A stretch of DNA of 64,000 bases from Streptomyces natalensis ATCC 27448 (lineage in GTDB: Bacteria; Actinomycetota; Actinomycetes; Streptomycetales; Streptomycetaceae), in contig NZ_JRKI01000061.1 of NCBI RefSeq assembly GCF_000935125.1, forward strand, positions 1 through 64,000, in the 5' to 3' direction. A model generated the notes under the pieces. That model saw only the letters and a list, made by a program, of their open reading frames with translations. It searched no databases and was not told the DNA's origin. Shown here piece after piece: positions 25,127 through 39,444 of the stretch (position 1 is its first letter; every line of letters starts with the position of its first letter). The position numbers and the translations under genes are program-made.

Positions 25127-25957
25127 ATGGACGACGACGAACAGCAGGCGGAGTACGAGCCCGGATCGGGGATCTTGCTGGTGTTCGGGCGACAGCTCAA
25201 GCGCCTACGCGAATGGGCAGGAATGGAACGCCCGGAATTCGGCGCGAAGACCGGCTACTCCGCTGCCACCATCGCCTCATACGAGCAGGGGCGGCGCATC
25301 CCCCCGCCCAAGTTCATCGACAAGGCGGACGAGGTACTGGGGGCACACGGCGTTCTGGTGGAGATGAAGGAGGAGGTGGCGAGGGCCCGGTATCCGGCGT
25401 TCTTCCGGGATGCGGCGCGGTTGGAGGCGACGGCGGTCGGGCTTCATGTGTATGCGGCGCAAGGGCTGCCGGGGCTGCTACAGACAAAGGAGTACGCGCG
25501 GGCGGTCTTCGCCATGTGGCGGCCCCTACTGGACGAAGAGACCATCCAGCAGCGAACTGCGGCACGGCTCGACCGCCAGCAGGTCTTTGCCCGCATGCCG
25601 GCGCCGACGATCAGCTTCGTCATCGAGGAGGCGTTGCTGCGCCGTCCCCTCGGTGGAAAGGCGGTCATGCGGGGCCAGTTGGAACAGATCCTGCTGCACG
25701 GCCAGCGCCGCAATGTCGAAATCCAAGTGATGCCGACCGCCCGGGAGGAGCACGCAGGACTGGGTGGGGCCTTCACCTTGATCGAGTCACGCGAAGGGCG
25801 GAGGATCGCCTATGTGGAGGCGTACAGGGACAGTCGCCTGCACTCGGACCGGAAAGCGGTCCGGGAGATCGAGGAGCAGTACGGAATCCTCAGAGCGCAG
25901 GCGCTCACGCCGCGCGAGTCGCTGGCCTTTGTCGAGAAGTTGCTGGGAGAAGCATGA
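25127..25957 (+). CDS. XRE-family regulator with DUF5753 domain
   Basis: 276 aa. N-terminal helix-turn-helix (about residues 18-70; F-G-A-K-T-G-Y-S-A-A-T-I-A-S-Y-E recognises as the HTH core), then a DUF5753/Scr1-type domain (about 90-270: Y-A-A-Q-G-L-P-G-L-L-Q-T-x-E-Y-A-R). WhiJ belongs to this family and controls Streptomyces development. The stop overlaps the DUF397 start as ATGA, so both are translated together. Confidence 0.9.
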   Translation: MDDDEQQAEYEPGSGILLVFGRQLKRLREWAGMERPEFGAKTGYSAATIASYEQGRRIPPPKFIDKADEVLGAHGVLVEMKEEVARARYPAFFRDAARLEATAVGLHVYAAQGLPGLLQTKEYARAVFAMWRPLLDEETIQQRTAARLDRQQVFARMPAPTISFVIEEALLRRPLGGKAVMRGQLEQILLHGQRRNVEIQVMPTAREEHAGLGGAFTLIESREGRRIAYVEAYRDSRLHSDRKAVREIEEQYGILRAQALTPRESLAFVEKLLGEA

Positions 25958-26166
25958 ACAACGAAGAGACTGCGCAGGCCGTGACTGAGTTGGCCTGGTT
26001 CAAGAGCAGCTACAGCAGTGGCGCGGGCGGCGAATGCGTCGAGATCGCATCTGGCGCCACCGCCGTGCATATCCGCGACTCGAAGGACCTCACACGGTCC
26101 GCGCTGACAGTACCCCCCGCCGCCTGGGCCACATTCGTCGGCTTCGCCATAGCCGAGGCGCCCTGA
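25954..26166 (+). CDS. DUF397 protein
   Basis: 70 aa. Family hallmarks: W-F-K-S-S-Y-S-S near the start, E-C-V-E-I-A, V-x-I-R-D-S-K-D and a terminal W-A-T-F-V. DUF397 proteins partner XRE/DUF5753 regulators in Streptomyces and are thought to modulate their DNA binding. Start ATG 25954 overlaps the upstream stop. Confidence 0.92.
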   Translation: MNNEETAQAVTELAWFKSSYSSGAGGECVEIASGATAVHIRDSKDLTRSALTVPPAAWATFVGFAIAEAP

Positions 26167-26333: not shown

Positions 26334-27692
26334 TTACCGGCCAGGCGGCTGCGTGGGCGGCGCCGGCGGGTACGAACCGGGCGCGCCGGGCTGCTGCTGA
26401 TACGGCTGCTGCTGGTTCGGCATGAACCCACCAGGACCGCCGGGCCCACCCGAGCCACCGTAGCCACCGGGACCACCGGGCGGCGGGCCGTTACGACCGT
26501 TCTTCTTCTTGGCCACGAGGACCACAACCAGGATGATGACGAGGACGGCCACCACACCACCGACGATGCCGATGATGACGCCGGTGCTCATACCCTTGTC
26601 GCTGTTGATGTTCGCCGACGTGTCGTCGTTGCCTGCTGCGCTGGAGGGCTTGGGAGTCGCGCCACCGCTCAGCGCCGGGAACGGGCCGTCCTTGGGGCCA
26701 GCGGGAACGTTCTTGGTCAGCGCGCTGTAGGGCTTGATGAAGCCGTAGCCGTAGTGCTGGTCGGGAAGCTTCATGCCCTGCTTGCTCGCCGGGATACCAG
26801 CCGTCTTGATCAGGCGGTTGGCCACCTGACCAGCCGTCAGGTTCGGGAATTTGGAACGAATAAGGGCCGCGGCTGCGGAGACGTAGGCGGTGGCGTCGGA
26901 GGTACCGTTGGCCAAGTGGTACTTACCCTTAGCCTCTTCCATGGCGCTTGCGGACCTGATACGCGCACCCGGAGCAGTCAACTTGACGTAAGGACCATAG
27001 TTGGATTTGCCCCAGACGTAACCATGGTCGTCCACTGCCCCCACTGCGAGAACACCTGGGGACCCAGCCGGATCTTGAGGAGTATCCACCCCGTCATTAC
27101 CTGAGGCCGCGACTACGAGCACGTCATGTTTGCGGGCATAGTCGATGGTCTGCTGCTCCTCTGGAGTCACCTCCCAGCCGCTGATACCGATCGACATGTT
27201 CACAACTTTCGCGCCCTTGTCGACTGCATACTTCAGCGCTTCAGCATATTTTGTCTGCTGCCCAGTCTTGGGATTCTCTTCGGTCGAGATGTTGATTGCA
27301 ACCGGAAGAATCTTAGCGTCGGGGGCTAGGCCCTTTACCCCCTCGGATCCACCAGCCCCATGACCGTGACCGGCAATCAGCGACGACATCGCCGTGCCGT
27401 GCTCCCCGTCATCACCAGAGCCCTGGTCTGCACGGCCACCAGTCACGAAGCTCTTACCCGGCAGAACCGATCCTGTGAGATCAGGGTGACTTCCGTACAC
27501 GGGCCCGTCGATTACTGCGACAGTAACGCCCTTACCCGTGGAAATCTTCCAGATCGACGCCGCATCGAACTTTTTCAATGGCCACTGGTCGTTCCTAATC
27601 TGGTCTGCCGAAGCAACCGGCGCGGTGCCGAAGAGCAGTGCCCCCGCCACTACCGCGCCGCTCACCGCACGCAGCGTCCGCGTGAAGCTCAT
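26334..27692 (-). CDS. mycP: Mycosin (T7SS subtilisin-like protease), atypical active site
   Basis: 452 aa. Signal peptide (residues 1-29), S8 protease domain, transmembrane helix at 371-394, then K-K-K and a Gly/Pro/Gln-rich cytosolic tail. Mycosins are membrane-anchored extracytoplasmic parts of ESX complexes. Catalytic residues are D62, H98 (H-G-T) and S265, with N199 as oxyanion residue. The flanks differ from the family: D-G-P instead of D-T-G, and G-T-S-D-A-T-A instead of G-T-S-M/F-A-x-P. Lower activity or changed specificity is possible. It is the last gene of a minus-strand run, behind a strong hairpin. Confidence 0.88.
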   Translation of the reverse strand: MSFTRTLRAVSGAVVAGALLFGTAPVASADQIRNDQWPLKKFDAASIWKISTGKGVTVAVIDGPVYGSHPDLTGSVLPGKSFVTGGRADQGSGDDGEHGTAMSSLIAGHGHGAGGSEGVKGLAPDAKILPVAINISTEENPKTGQQTKYAEALKYAVDKGAKVVNMSIGISGWEVTPEEQQTIDYARKHDVLVVAASGNDGVDTPQDPAGSPGVLAVGAVDDHGYVWGKSNYGPYVKLTAPGARIRSASAMEEAKGKYHLANGTSDATAYVSAAAALIRSKFPNLTAGQVANRLIKTAGIPASKQGMKLPDQHYGYGFIKPYSALTKNVPAGPKDGPFPALSGGATPKPSSAAGNDDTSANINSDKGMSTGVIIGIVGGVVAVLVIILVVVLVAKKKNGRNGPPPGGPGGYGGSGGPGGPGGFMPNQQQPYQQQPGAPGSYPPAPPTQPPGR

Positions 27693-29416: not shown

Positions 29417-29722
29417 TCACTTCATGCTGTTGTCGTGCTCGGCGTCCTCGTAGGCGTCCTTCGTCTGCTTGGACTTCTTGCCGAAATCGTCGATCATGTC
29501 CTCAATCAACTTGACGACATTCCGCTCGATGTAGTCCTTCATCTGGTTGTGGGCGTTGTGCATCCGATCCCGCTCTTCAAAACCCTTCCCCAGCGCCCCA
29601 TCCGACAGAAACGTCTGGTTCTTGGCCTTGTCCTTCGGGCCGCCCATGTCCTTCAGGACCTGGTTCAGCTCCTTGACGACCTGGTCCAGCGCGTCGAGAT
29701 CGACACCGTATTCCTTACCCAT
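29417..29722 (-). CDS. Helical Esx-like protein with YxxxE tail
   Basis: 101 aa, wholly helical, Lys/Asp-rich, with Y91-E-D-A-E95 near the C-terminus. The turn reads G-A-L-G-K-G-F rather than WXG. GGGGAGG lies within the last codons of mycP2, and the ATG overlaps the mycP2 frame by 8 nt, so coupling is likely. It may pair with the WXG head of the 27782 protein. Confidence 0.78.
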   Translation of the reverse strand: MGKEYGVDLDALDQVVKELNQVLKDMGGPKDKAKNQTFLSDGALGKGFEERDRMHNAHNQMKDYIERNVVKLIEDMIDDFGKKSKQTKDAYEDAEHDNSMK

Positions 29723-31019
29723 GCTGGGCCTCCCCGTGAGTTGTCAGTCCGTTCTTGCGGCGCCAGTCGCGTATGGCGATCGAGGAGCCGACGACCGCGG
29801 CGACGGCCAGGAGTCCGCCGCCGACAATGTAGATGGCGAAGCGCCCCTGCCGGTCCTCGGCGGTCTCTCCGAGGGTGACGGCGACCGGTTCGACGTCAGA
29901 GGCGCCGGCTGCGTTGGTGACCTTGTCCGGCGTGGGGTCACCAGTGGGGCGCGTGTCGTCGTTGAGGGCGGCGACCGGGTTGACGACACCCCAGCCGATG
30001 TTCTTGTCCTTGCCCTTGCGTACGCGGTCGGCCGTCTGCTCCAGGTGCGAGATGATCTGCGCCGGGCTCCACCGCGGCTTGTCGTTCTGGTGCTTGGCGA
30101 TCAGGAGGGCCGCGGCACCCGTGACGTACGGCGAGGCGAAGCTGGTGCCCTGGTCGACGCAGTTGCCGCCGCCGGGCACGGTGGAGACCATGTTGACGCC
30201 GGGAGCGGCGATGCCGACGAACCGACCGGGCTGCGAGAACGGCGCGCGTTCGTTGTTGCGGTCGGAGGCGGCGACGGCCAGGACGTTGTCGAAATCGTCA
30301 CTGAACGCGGCGGGGTAGTTGTTCTGCTCCTTGCCGCTGGCGCCGTCGTTGCCGGCCGAGGCGACGATCAGAACGCCCTTGTTCTTGGCCGTGCTGACCG
30401 CGTCCTTGAGCGGCCCCAGCTGGCTCTCGCTCGCGAGCGTGCCCTGCGAGATGTTGATGAGGTCGACGCCGTCCGAGACCGCGGCTTTGATGGCCTTGGC
30501 CAGGCTGACGGGGGTACCGGCCTGCTGGTCGCTGGTCGTCTGGTACGGGATGACCTTGGCACCGGGCGCGAGGCCGTAGAAGCCGGACGACGGGACTTTC
30601 TGGGCGGCGATGATGCCGGCGACCTTGGTGCCGTGGCCGACCGTGTCCACGGTCGCGGTCGCCTTGCCCTTCGTGACGAAGGACTTACCGGAGCCCAGGA
30701 TGGCCGGCCGGATCTGCGAGTTGCCCTTGTCGATACCGGTGTCGATGACACCGACCTTCACGCCCTCGCCTTTGCCGCTGGCCCACATCTGGTCGACCAG
30801 CAGCCGCTGGAGCGACCAGGGGGTCTCCTTGATGTTGCTGGCGCCGAACTTGCACTCACCGCTGTGGAGAGTGGTGTTGTCGTCCGCGACCGCCGGCGCG
30901 GCGGTGACACCCGACAGGCCGACGATGCACGCCGCCGTGACCAGTGCGCCCGTCGCTCGGCGACGGTGCCCGGCTCGTTGACCAATGGCGCGAGATCCCA
31001 CGAGTTGTCTGCTCTCCAT
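29715..31019 (-). CDS. mycP: Second mycosin, canonical active site
   Basis: 434 aa. R-rich start, signal peptide (about 1-45), subtilase domain, transmembrane helix (about 394-416) and a short basic cytosolic tail. All catalytic signatures are standard: D93 in V-I-D-T-G, H129 in G-H-G-T, N224 in S-A-G-N-D, and S293 in G-T-S-F-A-S-P. It shows the two mycosins of this locus are different in both active-site flank and tail. First gene of a run 29722-27782-mycP. Confidence 0.93.
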   Translation of the reverse strand: MESRQLVGSRAIGQRAGHRRRATGALVTAACIVGLSGVTAAPAVADDNTTLHSGECKFGASNIKETPWSLQRLLVDQMWASGKGEGVKVGVIDTGIDKGNSQIRPAILGSGKSFVTKGKATATVDTVGHGTKVAGIIAAQKVPSSGFYGLAPGAKVIPYQTTSDQQAGTPVSLAKAIKAAVSDGVDLINISQGTLASESQLGPLKDAVSTAKNKGVLIVASAGNDGASGKEQNNYPAAFSDDFDNVLAVAASDRNNERAPFSQPGRFVGIAAPGVNMVSTVPGGGNCVDQGTSFASPYVTGAAALLIAKHQNDKPRWSPAQIISHLEQTADRVRKGKDKNIGWGVVNPVAALNDDTRPTGDPTPDKVTNAAGASDVEPVAVTLGETAEDRQGRFAIYIVGGGLLAVAAVVGSSIAIRDWRRKNGLTTHGEAQHG

Positions 31020-34292: not shown

Positions 34293-35678
34293 ATGTCCAG
34301 CGCCACCAGGGCTCGACGCCGCAACGGGCGGCAACAGCAGCAACAAGCATCCGCTGCACCGCAATACGCGGGAAATGCCGGCCAAAACGACACAGCGCCG
34401 GGCAATAGGCGAAATAGAGGCCGGAGTTCCGCTGCCCGCCCGGCCGGTCCGGTGGCACCGCGGCTGCGCCAGCAGGCCGGCACCATCGGCGGTGTCCGGG
34501 TACAGCAACTGGCCATCATCGAACTCGCCGCCGCGCTGGTGCTGGTGGGCTGGACGATCCACCCCGCCGCCCTGACCGCGGCCGTCGTGGTGGCGGCGCT
34601 GCTGGTCGTCTTCGCGCTCGGCCGGCGGCGCAAGATTCCGCTGCCGGAATGGATCACGACGGTCCAGGCGATGAAGCGCCGCGGCAAGAACAGCTCCGCG
34701 GCGCTCGCCGCCACGCAGAACGTCGACCCGGCGCTGGCGCCCGTCGTCGAGTGCGAGCCGGCGCTGCGGACGTACGAGTACACGACCGAGTCGGACCAGC
34801 GCGCCATCGGATTCGTCGGCGACGGCACGTTCCTGACGGCCATCGTGCAGGTGACCGCCCGCGACGAACCGCTGCGGCCGCACCGTGGCAGCCACATGCT
34901 GCCGCTGGACGTGCTGCACACCGCGCTGGACGTGGAGGACATCCACCTGGAATCGGTGCAGTTCGTGCAGTACACCCAGCCGGCGCCGGCGCCGCATCTG
35001 CCCGAGCAGGCCGTCGCGGCCCGTTCGTACGCGCCGTTGCAGGCGCAGTCGCAGACGCCGGCCGTGCAGCTGTCGTGGATCGCGCTGAAGCTGGACCCGG
35101 AGCTGTGCGCCGAGGCCATCGAGGCCCGCGGCGGCGGGGTGGAGGGCGCCCAGCGCTCGCTGCTGCGCGCCGCCGACCAGCTCGTCAGCCGGCTCACCGC
35201 ACGGGGCGTACGCGCCAAGGTGCTCAACGAGCGTGAGGTCGTGGCCGCGGTCGGCACCGCCGTGTGTGTGAGCCCGCGGGCCGCCAACGGCGCGATGGGA
35301 GGCGGCGGCCGGGCCGGCCGCCGTACCCAGGAGACGACCCGGGCGATGCGCTGCGACGACCGCTGGCACTCCACCTACTGGATCGGCCGGTGGCCCCAAC
35401 TGGGCCAGGGCGGTGCCCCGTTGGCCGCCATCACCCAGCTGCTGACCAGCACCCGCGCGATGGCCAGCACCTTCTCGCTGACCGCCACGCACGGCAGCGG
35501 CCGCCTGCCGGCCATCACCGGCTACATCCGGCTGTCGACCCGCAGCGACAACGAACTCACCGCGGCGCAGAATGAGTTGGAGCGCCGCTCCGGTTCCGTG
35601 AAGGTCGGTCTCGTACGGCTCGACCGCGAGCAGCTGCCCGGCCTGCTGGCCACGCTTCCCCTCGGAGGTACCCGCTGA
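34293..35678 (+). CDS. eccE: T7SS membrane protein EccE
   Basis: 461 aa. Basic, Gln/Arg-rich start, two close hydrophobic helices (about 68-88 and 90-110), then a soluble domain with W-I-G-R-W-P and the type VII EccE core (I-x-x-L-T-S-T-R). EccE sits at the edge of the ESX membrane complex. Start ATG 34293 is my choice; GAGGAG is 12 nt upstream. The stop overlaps the next start as TGATG. Confidence 0.85.
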   Translation: MSSATRARRRNGRQQQQQASAAPQYAGNAGQNDTAPGNRRNRGRSSAARPAGPVAPRLRQQAGTIGGVRVQQLAIIELAAALVLVGWTIHPAALTAAVVVAALLVVFALGRRRKIPLPEWITTVQAMKRRGKNSSAALAATQNVDPALAPVVECEPALRTYEYTTESDQRAIGFVGDGTFLTAIVQVTARDEPLRPHRGSHMLPLDVLHTALDVEDIHLESVQFVQYTQPAPAPHLPEQAVAARSYAPLQAQSQTPAVQLSWIALKLDPELCAEAIEARGGGVEGAQRSLLRAADQLVSRLTARGVRAKVLNEREVVAAVGTAVCVSPRAANGAMGGGGRAGRRTQETTRAMRCDDRWHSTYWIGRWPQLGQGGAPLAAITQLLTSTRAMASTFSLTATHGSGRLPAITGYIRLSTRSDNELTAAQNELERRSGSVKVGLVRLDREQLPGLLATLPLGGTR

Positions 35679-36517
35679 TGGCCACTCCCACCTACCAGTC
35701 CCGCGTCACCGTCCAGAGCGACGGCTGGCGCAACGCTCCGATCGGCTCCGACAACGGCCGCCGGCTCAACCACCAGCCCCGCCCGGAGGAGGAGCAGTCC
35801 GGCCCCACCGGGCCCAAGCCCCGGCCCGGCTTCGGGCTGCGCGGGCCGCGCCGCAACGCGCATGTGCTGACGGCCGAGTCGCTCGGTGCGCTGACGCTGC
35901 CGGTCGGCGACGACGGCGTGATCATCGGTATCGATCCGCAGAACCAGCCCGCGGTGCTCAGCATGCTGCGCCCGGCGCCGATCGAGATCGCGCTGATCGG
36001 CAGCATGTGGATGGCCCAGGTGCTGGCGCTGCGTACGGTCGCCACTGGTGCGCGGGTCGCGGTGGAGACCGCGCGGCCGCAGGCATGGGGGCAGATGGCG
36101 CAGGCCGCGGGCGGCGGGCAGCAGTGCGTGTCGATCCACGAGGTGCGCCAGATCGCGCCGCAGGGACCGTCGGTTTCCAGCCCCGTGCTGGTCGTCCGGG
36201 ACATGGGTGCCCGGCCGCCGCGCAATCAACTCGCGCCCAGCCCCTGGCAGTCGGTGCTCACGGTGCTGCCGTTCCTGGGCCCGCGTTCGCCGCAGATGCT
36301 CGCCCGCGTCGACCTGGTCGGCCTCCAGCGGCTCTCCCCCGAGGAGGCGGAGGTTGTGACGCGCATCATGCGGCTGCCCGAGCAGGTCGGCGCGGTGCTG
36401 CCGACGCTCAGCGACAACGCCATGCTGTGGGCCTCGCGCGACGGCCACCAGTTCGTCATGACCCAGCCGACCGAGGCGGAGACCCAGCTGCTCGGCGGGC
36501 CGCGCCGGATGGACTGA
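35678..36517 (+). CDS. T7SS-linked conserved protein, unknown
   Basis: 279 aa, cytosolic, no signal peptide or transmembrane helix. It begins with 60 polar residues, then a globular domain with V-L-T-A-E-S-L and I-G-I-D-P-Q-N-Q-P-A-V-L-S. A good CGGAGG site precedes ATG 35678, and it overlaps eccE by one base. No motif I recognise. Tight coupling suggests a structural or assembly partner of EccE. Confidence 0.7.
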   Translation: MATPTYQSRVTVQSDGWRNAPIGSDNGRRLNHQPRPEEEQSGPTGPKPRPGFGLRGPRRNAHVLTAESLGALTLPVGDDGVIIGIDPQNQPAVLSMLRPAPIEIALIGSMWMAQVLALRTVATGARVAVETARPQAWGQMAQAAGGGQQCVSIHEVRQIAPQGPSVSSPVLVVRDMGARPPRNQLAPSPWQSVLTVLPFLGPRSPQMLARVDLVGLQRLSPEEAEVVTRIMRLPEQVGAVLPTLSDNAMLWASRDGHQFVMTQPTEAETQLLGGPRRMD

Positions 36518-36576
36518 CCACGGCCGGGGCCGGTCGTGCGCATGTGGTGCGCGCGGCCGGCCGGAGGCACGAAACC

Positions 36577-36602
36577 ACGGGCGCATCCTCGGATGCGCCC
36601 GT
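36577..36602 (+). terminator. eccE operon terminator
   Basis: Perfect 12-bp stem (36577-36588 with 36591-36602) with a 2-nt loop, 59 nt after the stop at 36517. Confidence 0.8.
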
Positions 36603-36634
36603 AGGTGTGCCAACGGGGCTCGAAGACGACATGA

Positions 36635-36732
36635 CACCGACTGCCGTTATGGGCCGACTCTTGATTAGGCTGTGTCCAGTGCGCGCAGAGCGCCGAAGCA
36701 CATGACTACGGCAGTCGGTGACGGCAGTCGGT
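36635..36732. promoter_or_regulatory. Inverted and tandem 12/13-mer repeats
   Basis: A 13-bp perfect inverted repeat (36635-36647 with 36708-36720), followed at once by a second direct copy (36721-36732). Candidate operator for the EspI-like gene. Confidence 0.55.
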
Positions 36733-36870
36733 CCGGGGATGGAGACAAGCAGTGTTGGCGCAGCCCCGAGTGGTGTGTTCCGACGTCCACGACATCCGAT
36801 TCATCCGATCGATCCGCCTGTATCCGGTCCTGCCGTTCAGGTGCGTTGCAGCAGTAGACCAGGAGGCACA

Positions 36871-39444
36871 GTGAGGGACCAGGAGGCTTTCCGTCCGGAC
36901 GGGAACGATCCTGACGATGACCAGTCCGAGTTCGATCTGACCGGCGAATTCAAGATCGATTTTGCCGCTCCGGCCTGGTATGCCAGCAACGACACCAGCG
37001 GAGGCGCCGGTGCCGCCGCCGCGCAGCCTCCTGCGCCCGCACCAGCGCCCGAGGCGGGGCCCACCGGGCAGCCGCAGGCGGGGCCGCCGCAGGGCCCGCC
37101 CGGTGTGCCGCCGCAGGGCGGCCCGGCCCAGGGTGCGCCGGCGCCGGCGGACGCCGCGCCGCCCGGGTTCCCGACGCTGCGCCCCAACGAGCCCGCCGAC
37201 GGGGCCCCTGCCGCCGCGCCGCAGACCCCGGAGGCCGCCCCGGCCGCGTCCGGCGGTGGCTCCGGCGAGGACCGGGTGCGTTCGGGCACCGGTGTCGATC
37301 CCTCGGCCTCGCTGTGGGACGACGATGACGACGACGAGCCGCAGGCGCAGGACGCGCCGGCGGAGGCGTCTGCGGCGCAGCCTGAGGCGCCCGCGCCGCA
37401 GGCGCCCGAGCAGCCCAGGCCCGCCGAGGCCCAGGCCGCACCGGCCCAGCAGGCCCCCGCGCAGCCGCAGCCGCAGCCGCAGCAGGGCGTCCCCGCGCAG
37501 GCCCAGCCGCAGCCGGAGGCCGCCCCGCAGCAGGCCCCCGTACCGCCGCAGCAGGCCCAGCAGCAGCCCCAGCAGGGAGCACCGCAGCAGGGCGCTCCCT
37601 GGGCCGCGGACGGCCAGCAGCAGCCACAGCAGCAGGGCCAACTGCCGCCGCTGCCGCCGGAGTTCCAGCCCGCGGACCCGCGGCTGGCCCAGGCCGGTCA
37701 GCCGCAGGCCCCGCAGCAGGCCCAGCAGCCCCAGCAGGCCCCCGTGCAGCAGCAGGCAGCGCAGCAGCAGCCCCAGCAGGGCTATCCGCAGCAGGCCCAG
37801 CAGCAGCCGCAGGGGTACCCGCAGCAGGCCCAGCAGCCGCAGCAGCAGCCCGCGTACGGCTATCCGCAGCCCGCCTACGGCTACCCCCAGCAGCAGGCCC
37901 AGCAGCCGCAGCAGAACCCCAATGCGGCGCAGCAGCAGCCCGCTTACGGCTATCCGCAGCAGCAGCCCTACCCGCAGCAGGGCCAGCAGCAGCCGCAGCA
38001 GCAGCCCGCATACGACCAGCAGCAGGCGCAGGCCCAGCAGGCGGCCCAGGCCCAGGCGCAGGCCCAGCAGCAGGCCGCCGCCCAGGCCCAGCACGCACAG
38101 CAGCAGGCCCAGCAGCAGCAACAGCCGCAGCAGCCCCAGCCGTTCCCCGGTCAGCAGGGCGTCGACCCCAACGCCGCGGCGAACTACGCCCAGTACTCGC
38201 AGCCCGGCCAGCAGCAGCCCCAGCGGTCGGCCCCGGGCGCACCGCTCGGCTACAGCGCCGCCGTCGAGCTGACCTCCGACCGCCTGCTGCGCAACCAGCC
38301 CAAGAAGCGCAAGCCGGGTGCCAACGCGCAGCCGTCGAAGTTCAAGCTGGGCGCGAAGAAGGAGCTGGAGGAGCGTCAGCAGAAGCTCCAGCTGATCCGT
38401 ACGCCGGTGATGTCCTGCTACCGGATCGCGGTGATCAGCCTCAAGGGCGGCGTCGGCAAGACCACGACGACCACCGCGCTGGGCTCCACCCTGGCCTCCG
38501 AGCGGCAGGACAAGATCCTGGCGATCGACGCCAACCCGGACGCCGGCACGCTCGGCCGACGGGTGCGCCGCGAGACCGGTGCGACCATCCGTGACCTGGT
38601 GCAGGCGATTCCGCATCTGCACAGCTACATGGACATCCGCCGGTTCACCTCGCAGGCCCCCTCGGGTCTGGAGATCCTCGCCAACGACGTCGACCCGGCC
38701 GTCTCGACGACCTTCAACGACGACGACTACCGCCGGGCGATCGACATCCTGGGCAAGCAGTACCCGATCATCCTCACCGACTCGGGTACCGGCCTGCTCT
38801 ACAGCGCGATGCGCGGGGTCCTCGACCTCGCCGACCAGTTGATCATCATCTCCACCCCGTCCGTGGACGGTGCGAGCAGCGCCAGTACGACGCTGGACTG
38901 GCTGTCCGCACACGGCTACGCCGACCTGGTACAGCGCGGTATCACGGTCATCTCCGGGGTCCGCGAGACCGGCAAGATGATCAAGATCGACGACATCGTG
39001 TCGCACTTCGAGACGCGCTGCCGCGGTGTGGTCGTCGTCCCCTTCGACGAGCATCTCGCCGCCGGCGCCGAGGTCGATCTCGACATGATGCGGCCCAAGA
39101 CCCGCGAGGCGTACTTCCACCTCTCCGCCCTGGTGGCCGAGGACTTCGCACGCCAGCAGCAGGCGCAGGGCATGTACGCGCAACAGCAGATGGGCGGCGA
39201 CCCGTACGCCCAGCAGCAGTACGCCCAGCAGGGCCAGCAGCCGCAGCAGGGCCAGCAGCCGCAGCAGGGCTATCCGCAGCAGCAGGGCCAGCCCGCGCAG
39301 CCGCCCGCCGGTTACCCCCCGCAGCAGGGCGGCTGGCAGCAGCAGCCCGGCCAGCCCCCGTCCGGCTGGCAGCAGCAACAGCCGGCGCCGGACGCTCCCC
39401 TGCCGGACGGCGGCGGCTGGACCCAGCAGCCGCCTCCGCAGTGA
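36871..39444 (+). CDS. EspI-like MinD/ParA ATPase with Gln/Pro-rich arms
   Basis: 857 aa. Residues about 40-450 are Ala/Pro/Gln-rich with acidic patches (D-D-D-D-D-E); 520-770 is a deviant-Walker MinD/ParA ATPase (K525-GGVGK-T531, with L-A-I-D-A-N-P-D as switch); 780-857 is again Gln/Gly/Tyr-rich. Mycobacterial EspI has the same plan of a disordered Pro-rich arm and ParA-type ATPase. GTG 36871 with AGGAGG is preferred to the frame start at 36718. Role in T7SS is inferred from context and domain order. Confidence 0.85.
37430..38170 (+). repeat. Gln/Pro/Ala codon repeat tract
   Basis: Long imperfect repeats of CAGCAG, CAGCCC and GGCTATCCGCAG units encode Q-Q, Q-P and G-Y-P-Q-Q blocks. Probable replication-slippage tract. 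Confidence 0.75.

What the first reader, a model, noticed from the sequence alone, without database searches (positions are those of the whole stretch)
36635..36732. Three copies of ACGGCAGTCGGT upstream of the EspI-like gene
One inverted and two tandem copies, over about 100 bp, flank a possible promoter. This geometry suits a dimeric regulator with looping, or an RNA hairpin.
Basis: seen in the sequence. Interest (0 to 1): 0.5.

Follow-up and report, generated by a model that had tools for sequence, protein, structure and literature searches.

The report
Promoter box repeated before SCO5717-type gene
The three repeats are real, but one of them is the front half of a promoter that most of the Streptomyces loci compared here share in front of the same type VII secretion gene, and the other two are a locally duplicated, mirror-image copy of it with an unproven regulatory role.

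Summary
In detail: ACGGCAGTCGGT occurs inverted at 36636-36647 and in tandem at 36708-36719 and 36721-36732, and nowhere else in the window. Three copies of a 12-mer arose in 1 of 20,000 shuffles of the intergenic stretch. The host is a Streptomyces of the noursei/lydicus kind; the downstream gene is an SCO5717-family ATPase in a type VII secretion locus.

Comparison changes the picture. Copy 1 does not flank the promoter: its core CTGCCG is the promoter's upstream half. CTGCCG-N16-GATTAGG(C/G)TG was found in 47 of 121 Streptomyces genomes, once each, never in the reversed control. All 69 matches checked lie before this gene. Of 66 testable named loci, 60 carry it with at most 2 mismatches.

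Copy 3 is a clade-level inverted partner (10-12 of 12 positions in 20 of 27 loci). Copy 2 comes from a 13-bp tandem duplication shared with the noursei/albospinus group, intact only here and in one near relative. Arm changes do not compensate, so an RNA hairpin is disfavoured. Best reading: promoter box plus clade-specific extra operator copies; regulator unknown.

The parts
36577..36602 (+). 12/12 inverted repeat with a 2-nt loop after the upstream gene, no T run; possible terminator
   Evidence: pair I5; one search finds no T-tailed terminator; recognisable in L002-L005
36636..36647 (-). copy 1 (inverted); holds the upstream promoter box CTGCCG at 36641-36646
   Evidence: (A/G)(C/T)CGACTGCC in 27 of 27 clade loci (9 of them picked with a pattern that contains it); CTGCCG or one mismatch in most named non-clade loci
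36666..36671 (+). predicted -10 element TAGGCT, 19 nt after CTGCCG; start of transcription inferred near 36678
   Evidence: fits TANNNT reported by Jeong et al. 2016 (passages read); a generic sigma-70 consensus scan does not flag it
36708..36719 (+). copy 2, upstream member of the 13-bp tandem; present but decayed in 8 other clade loci, absent in 18 of 27
   Evidence: tree
36721..36732 (+). copy 3, in the predicted 5' leader, ending 8 nt before GGAG
   Evidence: usual clade form ACGGC(A/T)G(T/C)CGAT
36752..36874 (+). small open frame (40 codons) whose TGA overlaps the GTG of the next gene; coding not shown
   Evidence: no codon-position bias of changes
36812..36847 (+). leader block almost invariant in the clade (35 of 36 columns in 27 loci)
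36871..39444 (+).
   Evidence: NCBIfam NF041021 48.7 bits over cut-off 35; CbiA and AAA_31 above Pfam cut-offs

Best explanation
This is the promoter and leader of the SCO5717-family (EspI-like) ATPase gene of a Streptomyces type VII secretion locus. Copy 1 is the extended upstream (-35 region) box of a promoter found once per genome and shared widely in the genus: GGCCTGCCG or similar in other species, CGACTGCCG in this clade, 19 nt before TAGG(C/G)T. Copy 3 is an inverted relative of that box in the first 60 nt of the predicted transcript, specific to this clade. Copy 2 arose from one 13-bp tandem duplication in the ancestor of the window's species and the noursei/albospinus group. Shown by sequence: the conserved box and -10-like element, at most one per genome, always before this gene where checked, the clade-level inverted pair, the later duplication. 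Inferred: that these elements act as a promoter, and that a protein which reads the box also reads copies 2 and 3 and uses them as a downstream operator, as a roadblock or short loop. The regulator is not identified.
For: CTGCCG-N16-GATTAGG(C/G)TG: 47 of 121 Streptomyces genomes and 60 of 147 genomes of the order, all hits inside the genus, none in the 15 genomes of other genera (some genomes are in both calls); never more than one per genome; 0 in the reversed control in both. 69 of 69 checked matches (30 of the 47, plus 39 in named loci) lie 216-309 nt before the GEF-IDY motif of this gene (which looked 100-420 nt downstream). Of 80 named loci, 66 hold the gene start with enough upstream sequence, and 60 of these have the signature with at most 2 mismatches; one shuffle per locus never did better than 4. 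Inverted partner, same scoring for both groups: 10 or more of 12 positions in 18 of 21 clade matches against 0 of 48 non-clade matches (counted by me from its rows); 20 of 27 clade loci. Tandem group: 8 of its 9 loci have 12/12 arms, the 18 single-copy loci 7-11. The tree of 2.8 kb puts the window beside the noursei/albospinus group (support 90/88), all 7 rows of which carry copy 2.
Against: Copy 3 is not more conserved than the leader around it (mean column identity 0.92 against 0.86-0.95). The inverted pair and the promoter signature each occur once in the own genome, so no regulon supports a dedicated regulator. Once present, copy 3 is inherited, so its persistence in relatives is not independent evidence. 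Distances between the arms drift over about half a helical turn. The -10 and start site are predicted, not mapped, and a generic sigma-70 scan finds no promoter here. 6 of 66 named loci lack the signature, and 74 of 121 genomes lack its exact form. The tree from the ATPase part alone leaves the window unresolved.
Confidence: 0.45

Rival explanations
1. Only a promoter: copy 1 is just an ordinary -35 hexamer of the principal sigma factor, copy 3 resembles it by chance, and copy 2 is a neutral slippage duplication. Copies 2 and 3 have no regulatory function.
For: CTGCCG shares T, G and the fifth-position C with the reported -35 motif NTGACC (passages read), and four named loci have CTGAC at the same place (L089, L091, L104, L120). 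TAGGCT fits TANNNT. Copy 3 is no better conserved than its surroundings. Copy 2 decayed in the noursei group.
Against: The inverted match extends beyond the hexamer to 12-13 positions and is 12/12 in 8 of 27 loci. Non-clade matches show no downstream partner of 10 or more of 12 (0 of 48). Three copies of a 12-mer arose in 1 of 20,000 shuffles. A 19-nt spacer is longer than the usual 17-18 (general knowledge).
Confidence: 0.35
2. RNA hairpin or attenuator: copy 1 pairs with copy 2 or 3 in a transcript that reads through from upstream, or in an antisense RNA.
For: The single strand 36625-36745 folds at -55.3 kcal/mol, z = -3.6, 0 of 200 shuffles as good.
Against: Copy 1 lies upstream of the predicted start. 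In 26 aligned loci, 1 of 12 pairs has a double change, in 2 sequences, which 402 of 500 shuffles reach; 8 of 26 sequences break the A-U pair at column 9; 89.1% of cells pair against 88.9% in shuffles. RNAalifold does not choose this helix, and none of its 15 pairs has a double change. No Rfam family reached its gathering score; the only match (a human lncRNA family, 23.7 bits against a cut-off of 55, E 0.0035, minus strand 36860-36893) is taken as chance.
Confidence: 0.07
3. DNA looping by a dimeric or tetrameric regulator held between copy 1 and copies 2/3.
For: Inverted orientation around the -10 element, start-to-start distances of 72 and 85 bp in the window; the tandem group keeps 11-12 of 12 arm identity.
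Against: Start-to-start distances are 61-66 in 17 single-copy loci and 74-85 for copy 3 in 9 tandem loci; mean phase vectors 0.73 and 0.69 are not sharp (L039, whose copy is disrupted, was left out). No regulator found.
Confidence: 0.12

Closest known systems
Streptomyces principal-sigma (HrdB-type) promoters, -10 TANNNT and -35 NTGACC (Jeong et al. 2016, PMC4895711; HrdB regulon paper PMC6344877; passages of both read)
   Same: TAGGCT fits the -10 motif; the -35 motif is reported as weakly conserved or absent, so a divergent box is ordinary
   Different: here the upstream box is conserved across species (GGCCTGCCG-like or CGACTGCCG), the spacing is 19 nt throughout, and the combination was found at most once per genome
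WhiJ9 operator of S. [quoted passage not shown]
   Same: a small cluster of about 10-bp repeats in a Streptomyces intergenic region
   Different: other sequence; all three are direct repeats lying 113 bp upstream of the iosA start, while here one inverted copy sits in the promoter and two lie downstream of the predicted start
ParA/SopA-type autoregulated partition promoters (recalled, no call)
   Same: the gene downstream encodes a ParA/MinD-like ATPase and the repeats lie on its own promoter
   Different: no DNA-binding domain was matched in the protein; no binding data

Membership tests
HrdB-type Streptomyces promoter | -10 hexamer TANNNT | tested here: met
   TAGGCT at 36666-36671; TAG(G/T)CT at the same distance in the clade loci; motif definition
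HrdB-type Streptomyces promoter | -35 hexamer NTGACC at normal spacing | tested here: inconclusive
   CTGCCG agrees at T, G and one C, and the spacer is 19 nt; generic consensus scan negative
HrdB-type Streptomyces promoter | mapped transcription start 6-8 nt downstream | not testable with these tools
Operator of a dimeric regulator | several copies of one motif around one promoter | tested here: met
Operator of a dimeric regulator | motif conserved above its surroundings | tested here: not met
   copy 3 0.92 against 0.86-0.95 in leader stretches beside it; copy 1 0.94 against 0.92 before it and 0.89 after it
Operator of a dimeric regulator | same motif pair at other promoters of the genome | tested here: not met
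   the inverted pair occurs once in the own genome, the promoter signature once; single weaker sites were not searched genome-wide
Operator of a dimeric regulator | a protein that binds it | not testable with these tools
   needs pull-down or gel shift
RNA hairpin element | compensatory changes between the arms | tested here: not met
WhiJ-type direct-repeat operator | CGNNCTCAAC repeats | tested here: not met
   sequence of the three copies compared by eye with the consensus quoted
SCO5717 family (gene downstream) | NCBIfam NF041021 N-terminal model above its cut-off | tested here: met
   48.7 bits, cut-off 35
Mycobacterial EspI | orthology with ESX-1 EspI | not tested
   no mycobacterial EspI sequence was compared; only a ParA/MinD-like ATPase domain is shown

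The most novel reading that the evidence does not exclude
The promoter is read by a dedicated protein with a single target in the genome, possibly the SCO5717-type ATPase itself in a ParA/SopA-like feedback loop. Copies 2 and 3 would then be a recently amplified autoregulatory operator of the type VII secretion locus.
Probability: 0.08. Interest if true: 0.6.

Novelty: new member of a known kind. Interest (0 to 1): 0.3.

Why it matters
It replaces a local curiosity with a precise, testable regulatory site: a promoter signature, at most one per genome, that marks the start of an SCO5717-type ATPase gene in 60 of 66 testable named Streptomyces loci. In the held library of papers I found none naming SCO5717 or this 12-mer. 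If copies 2 and 3 prove functional, the clade is a natural series (one downstream copy, decayed tandem, intact tandem) for watching an operator being added to a promoter of a secretion system that, in Streptomyces, has been linked to development (passages of PMC8401907).

Tried and rejected
RNA hairpin: rejected as main reading. Coding function of the small frame 36752-36874: open in the clade loci, with an in-frame 9-nt and a 3-nt insertion in the window, but changes fall about equally on all codon positions and one relative lacks the start codon (L055), so not claimed. Miniature transposon with 13-bp ends: considered on sight and dropped, because copy 1 is part of a promoter that sits at the same place in many species. 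Regulon search: the inverted pair and the promoter signature each occur once in the own genome; in the window a looser promoter pattern occurs at chance level (19 found, 17.7 expected). Generic sigma-70 promoter and T-tailed terminator scan: nothing found in 36400-37000. Literature on regulation of this locus in Streptomyces: nothing specific seen in the listings.

Failed or weak steps: one search used a pattern with one N too many (not even the window matches) and is not used. 9 of the 27 clade loci were picked with a pattern that fixes the promoter spacing, so only the 18 named ones, picked by protein similarity, test it. 14 of 80 named loci lack the gene start or enough upstream sequence and were dropped (listed there). 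One search gave 26 of 27 distinct loci to the alignment, because one became identical once shortened. L039 was left out of the phase summary. 17 of the 47 matches were not fetched and so not checked for position. In one search copy 3 is the best match to ACGGCAGTCGAT among 65 offsets, which flatters it; one search scores all loci alike over 71 offsets. In one search the script reported copy 2 as the best match for the window, so its distances of 72 and 85 are taken. The tree (ATPase part only) did not resolve the window and was replaced.

Full report
What is there. The three copies are exact and at the stated place: 36636-36647 on the minus strand, 36708-36719 and 36721-36732 on the plus strand. 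Copy 1 with copy 2 forms a perfect 13-bp inverted repeat with 60 nt between, and copies 2 and 3 start 13 nt apart. Three copies of one 12-mer appeared in 1 of 20,000 shuffles of the intergenic stretch 36518-36870; single inverted or direct pairs were much commoner (928 and 140).

Setting. The window is from a Streptomyces. By path its nearest named rows at this locus are S. albospinus, S. piniterrae, S. sioyaensis, S. lydicus and S. kronopolitis, and it groups with the noursei/albospinus branch. Around the site lie EccE (TIGR03923, above cut-off), EccB (T7SS_ESX1_EccB above the Pfam cut-off; TIGR03919 144.5 bits, below its cut-off of 154), mycosin (TIGR03921, above cut-off) and two WXG100 genes. 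The gene downstream starts with GTG at 36871 behind GGAGG and belongs to the SCO5717 family (NF041021). It has a ParA/MinD-like ATPase domain from residue 519.

Close relatives. A first search with the 473-bp region gave, besides the window, 8 loci with long matches among 199 genomes of the genus (alignment). Widening it gave 27 distinct clade loci including the window; 9 of them were picked with a pattern that contains the promoter block, the 18 named ones by protein similarity. In all 27, TAG(G/T)CT begins 30 nt after the start of copy 1. Copy 3 is present as ACGGC(A/T)G(T/C)CGAT or close to it; the identity of the best downstream copy with the reverse complement of copy 1 is 12/12 in 8 loci, 11 in 5, 10 in 7, 9 in 4, 8 in 2 and 7 in 1. 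Copy 2 is recognisable in 9 of 27 loci, always 13 nt from copy 3, and intact only in the window. One more genome fetched later (L166), differing from the window at few positions over 561 bases, has all three copies intact, while L167 has the single-copy form. A tree of 2.8 kb of neighbouring DNA puts the window beside the noursei/albospinus group, 90/88; the ATPase part alone did not resolve it. One 13-bp tandem duplication in their ancestor explains the pattern.

The wider genus. The non-clade loci examined do not have the 12-mer, but most have GGCCTGCCG or similar at the same place, with the same 19 nt to TAGG(C/G)T. The signature CTGCCG-N16-GATTAGG(C/G)TG hits 47 of 121 genomes of the genus and 60 of 147 of the order (the two samples overlap). 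No genome has more than one hit, the reversed pattern has none, and none of the 15 genomes from other genera has one. Of the hits I checked, 69 of 69 are 216-309 nt before the same gene. Among 66 testable named loci, 60 have at most 2 mismatches; the other six have 4 to 6, which is the range of the shuffles (4 to 7). The most informative positions are the T of the box and the ATTA and last T of the -10 region.

Reading. Copy 1 is therefore the upstream element of a conserved promoter-like signature and not a site that flanks one. TAGGCT fits the TANNNT of Jeong et al. 2016, and -35 elements are reported as weak in HrdB promoters (passages read). A generic sigma-70 consensus scan does not flag it. 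A plain -35 box explains the core of copy 1. It does not explain the 12-13 bp inverted match with copies 2 and 3, which non-clade loci lack: 10 or more of 12 in 18 of 21 clade matches against 0 of 48 non-clade matches, which reach 7-9. The simplest functional account is that a protein which sees the box also sees the downstream copies. That step is inferred.

Results against it. Copy 3 is not better conserved than the leader beside it (0.92 against 0.86-0.95; copy 1 0.94; the -10 region 0.997; a leader block at 36812-36847 0.999). The pair occurs once in the own genome. Arm spacing drifts from 61 to 66 and from 74 to 85. The arms do not covary as RNA, and the consensus fold does not choose them, although the window's own sequence folds well (z = -3.6). 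These results lower the looping and hairpin readings and leave 'promoter plus decorative duplication' as a strong rival.

Verdict. Real, ordinary in its core (a promoter), with a clade-specific elaboration whose function is open. The useful result is the promoter signature, at most one per genome, before the SCO5717-type ATPase gene.

Noticed in passing
window 36812-36847: A 36-nt leader block invariant at 35 of 36 columns in 27 clade loci, more conserved than the start of the gene itself; it holds CTGCCGTT, an 8-mer also present in copy 1 with its next base. Function unknown.
   Followed up: partly
window 36752-36874: A 40-codon frame with a GGAG 7 nt before its GTG and a TGA overlapping the next gene's GTG ([10 protein letters not shown] core, conserved in the clade loci); substitutions show no codon-position bias.
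   Followed up: partly
e.g. L068:3261-3322, L089:2740-2801, L105:3174-3235: In many of the 39 distinct non-clade leaders printed, the stretch just before the ribosome site is a conserved CACGGCA..AGGGTGCTCGACCACACCAGGAGG that could form a hairpin (by eye); not folded.
   Followed up: no
window 25127-25957 and 25954-26166: An XRE-type regulator (HTH_31 with DUF5753) overlapping a DUF397 gene, the WhiJ/BldB-like pair type, about 3.5 kb from the mycosin gene at 29715-31019, with a second subtilase gene (26334-27692) between.
   Followed up: no
window 35678-36517: A 279-aa frame that starts on the last base of the EccE stop codon and matches no Pfam or NCBIfam family at the thresholds used.
   Followed up: no
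L072, L123, L126: In these three loci the promoter signature lies only 169 nt before the GEF-IDY motif, against 244-310 nt in the other non-clade named loci that have it, so their leader is about 80 nt shorter.
   Followed up: no
L079, L082, L086, L107, L116, L122: These six named loci lack the promoter signature (4-6 mismatches); L082, L086 and L116 keep GATTAG(T/G)CT with a different upstream part.
   Followed up: no
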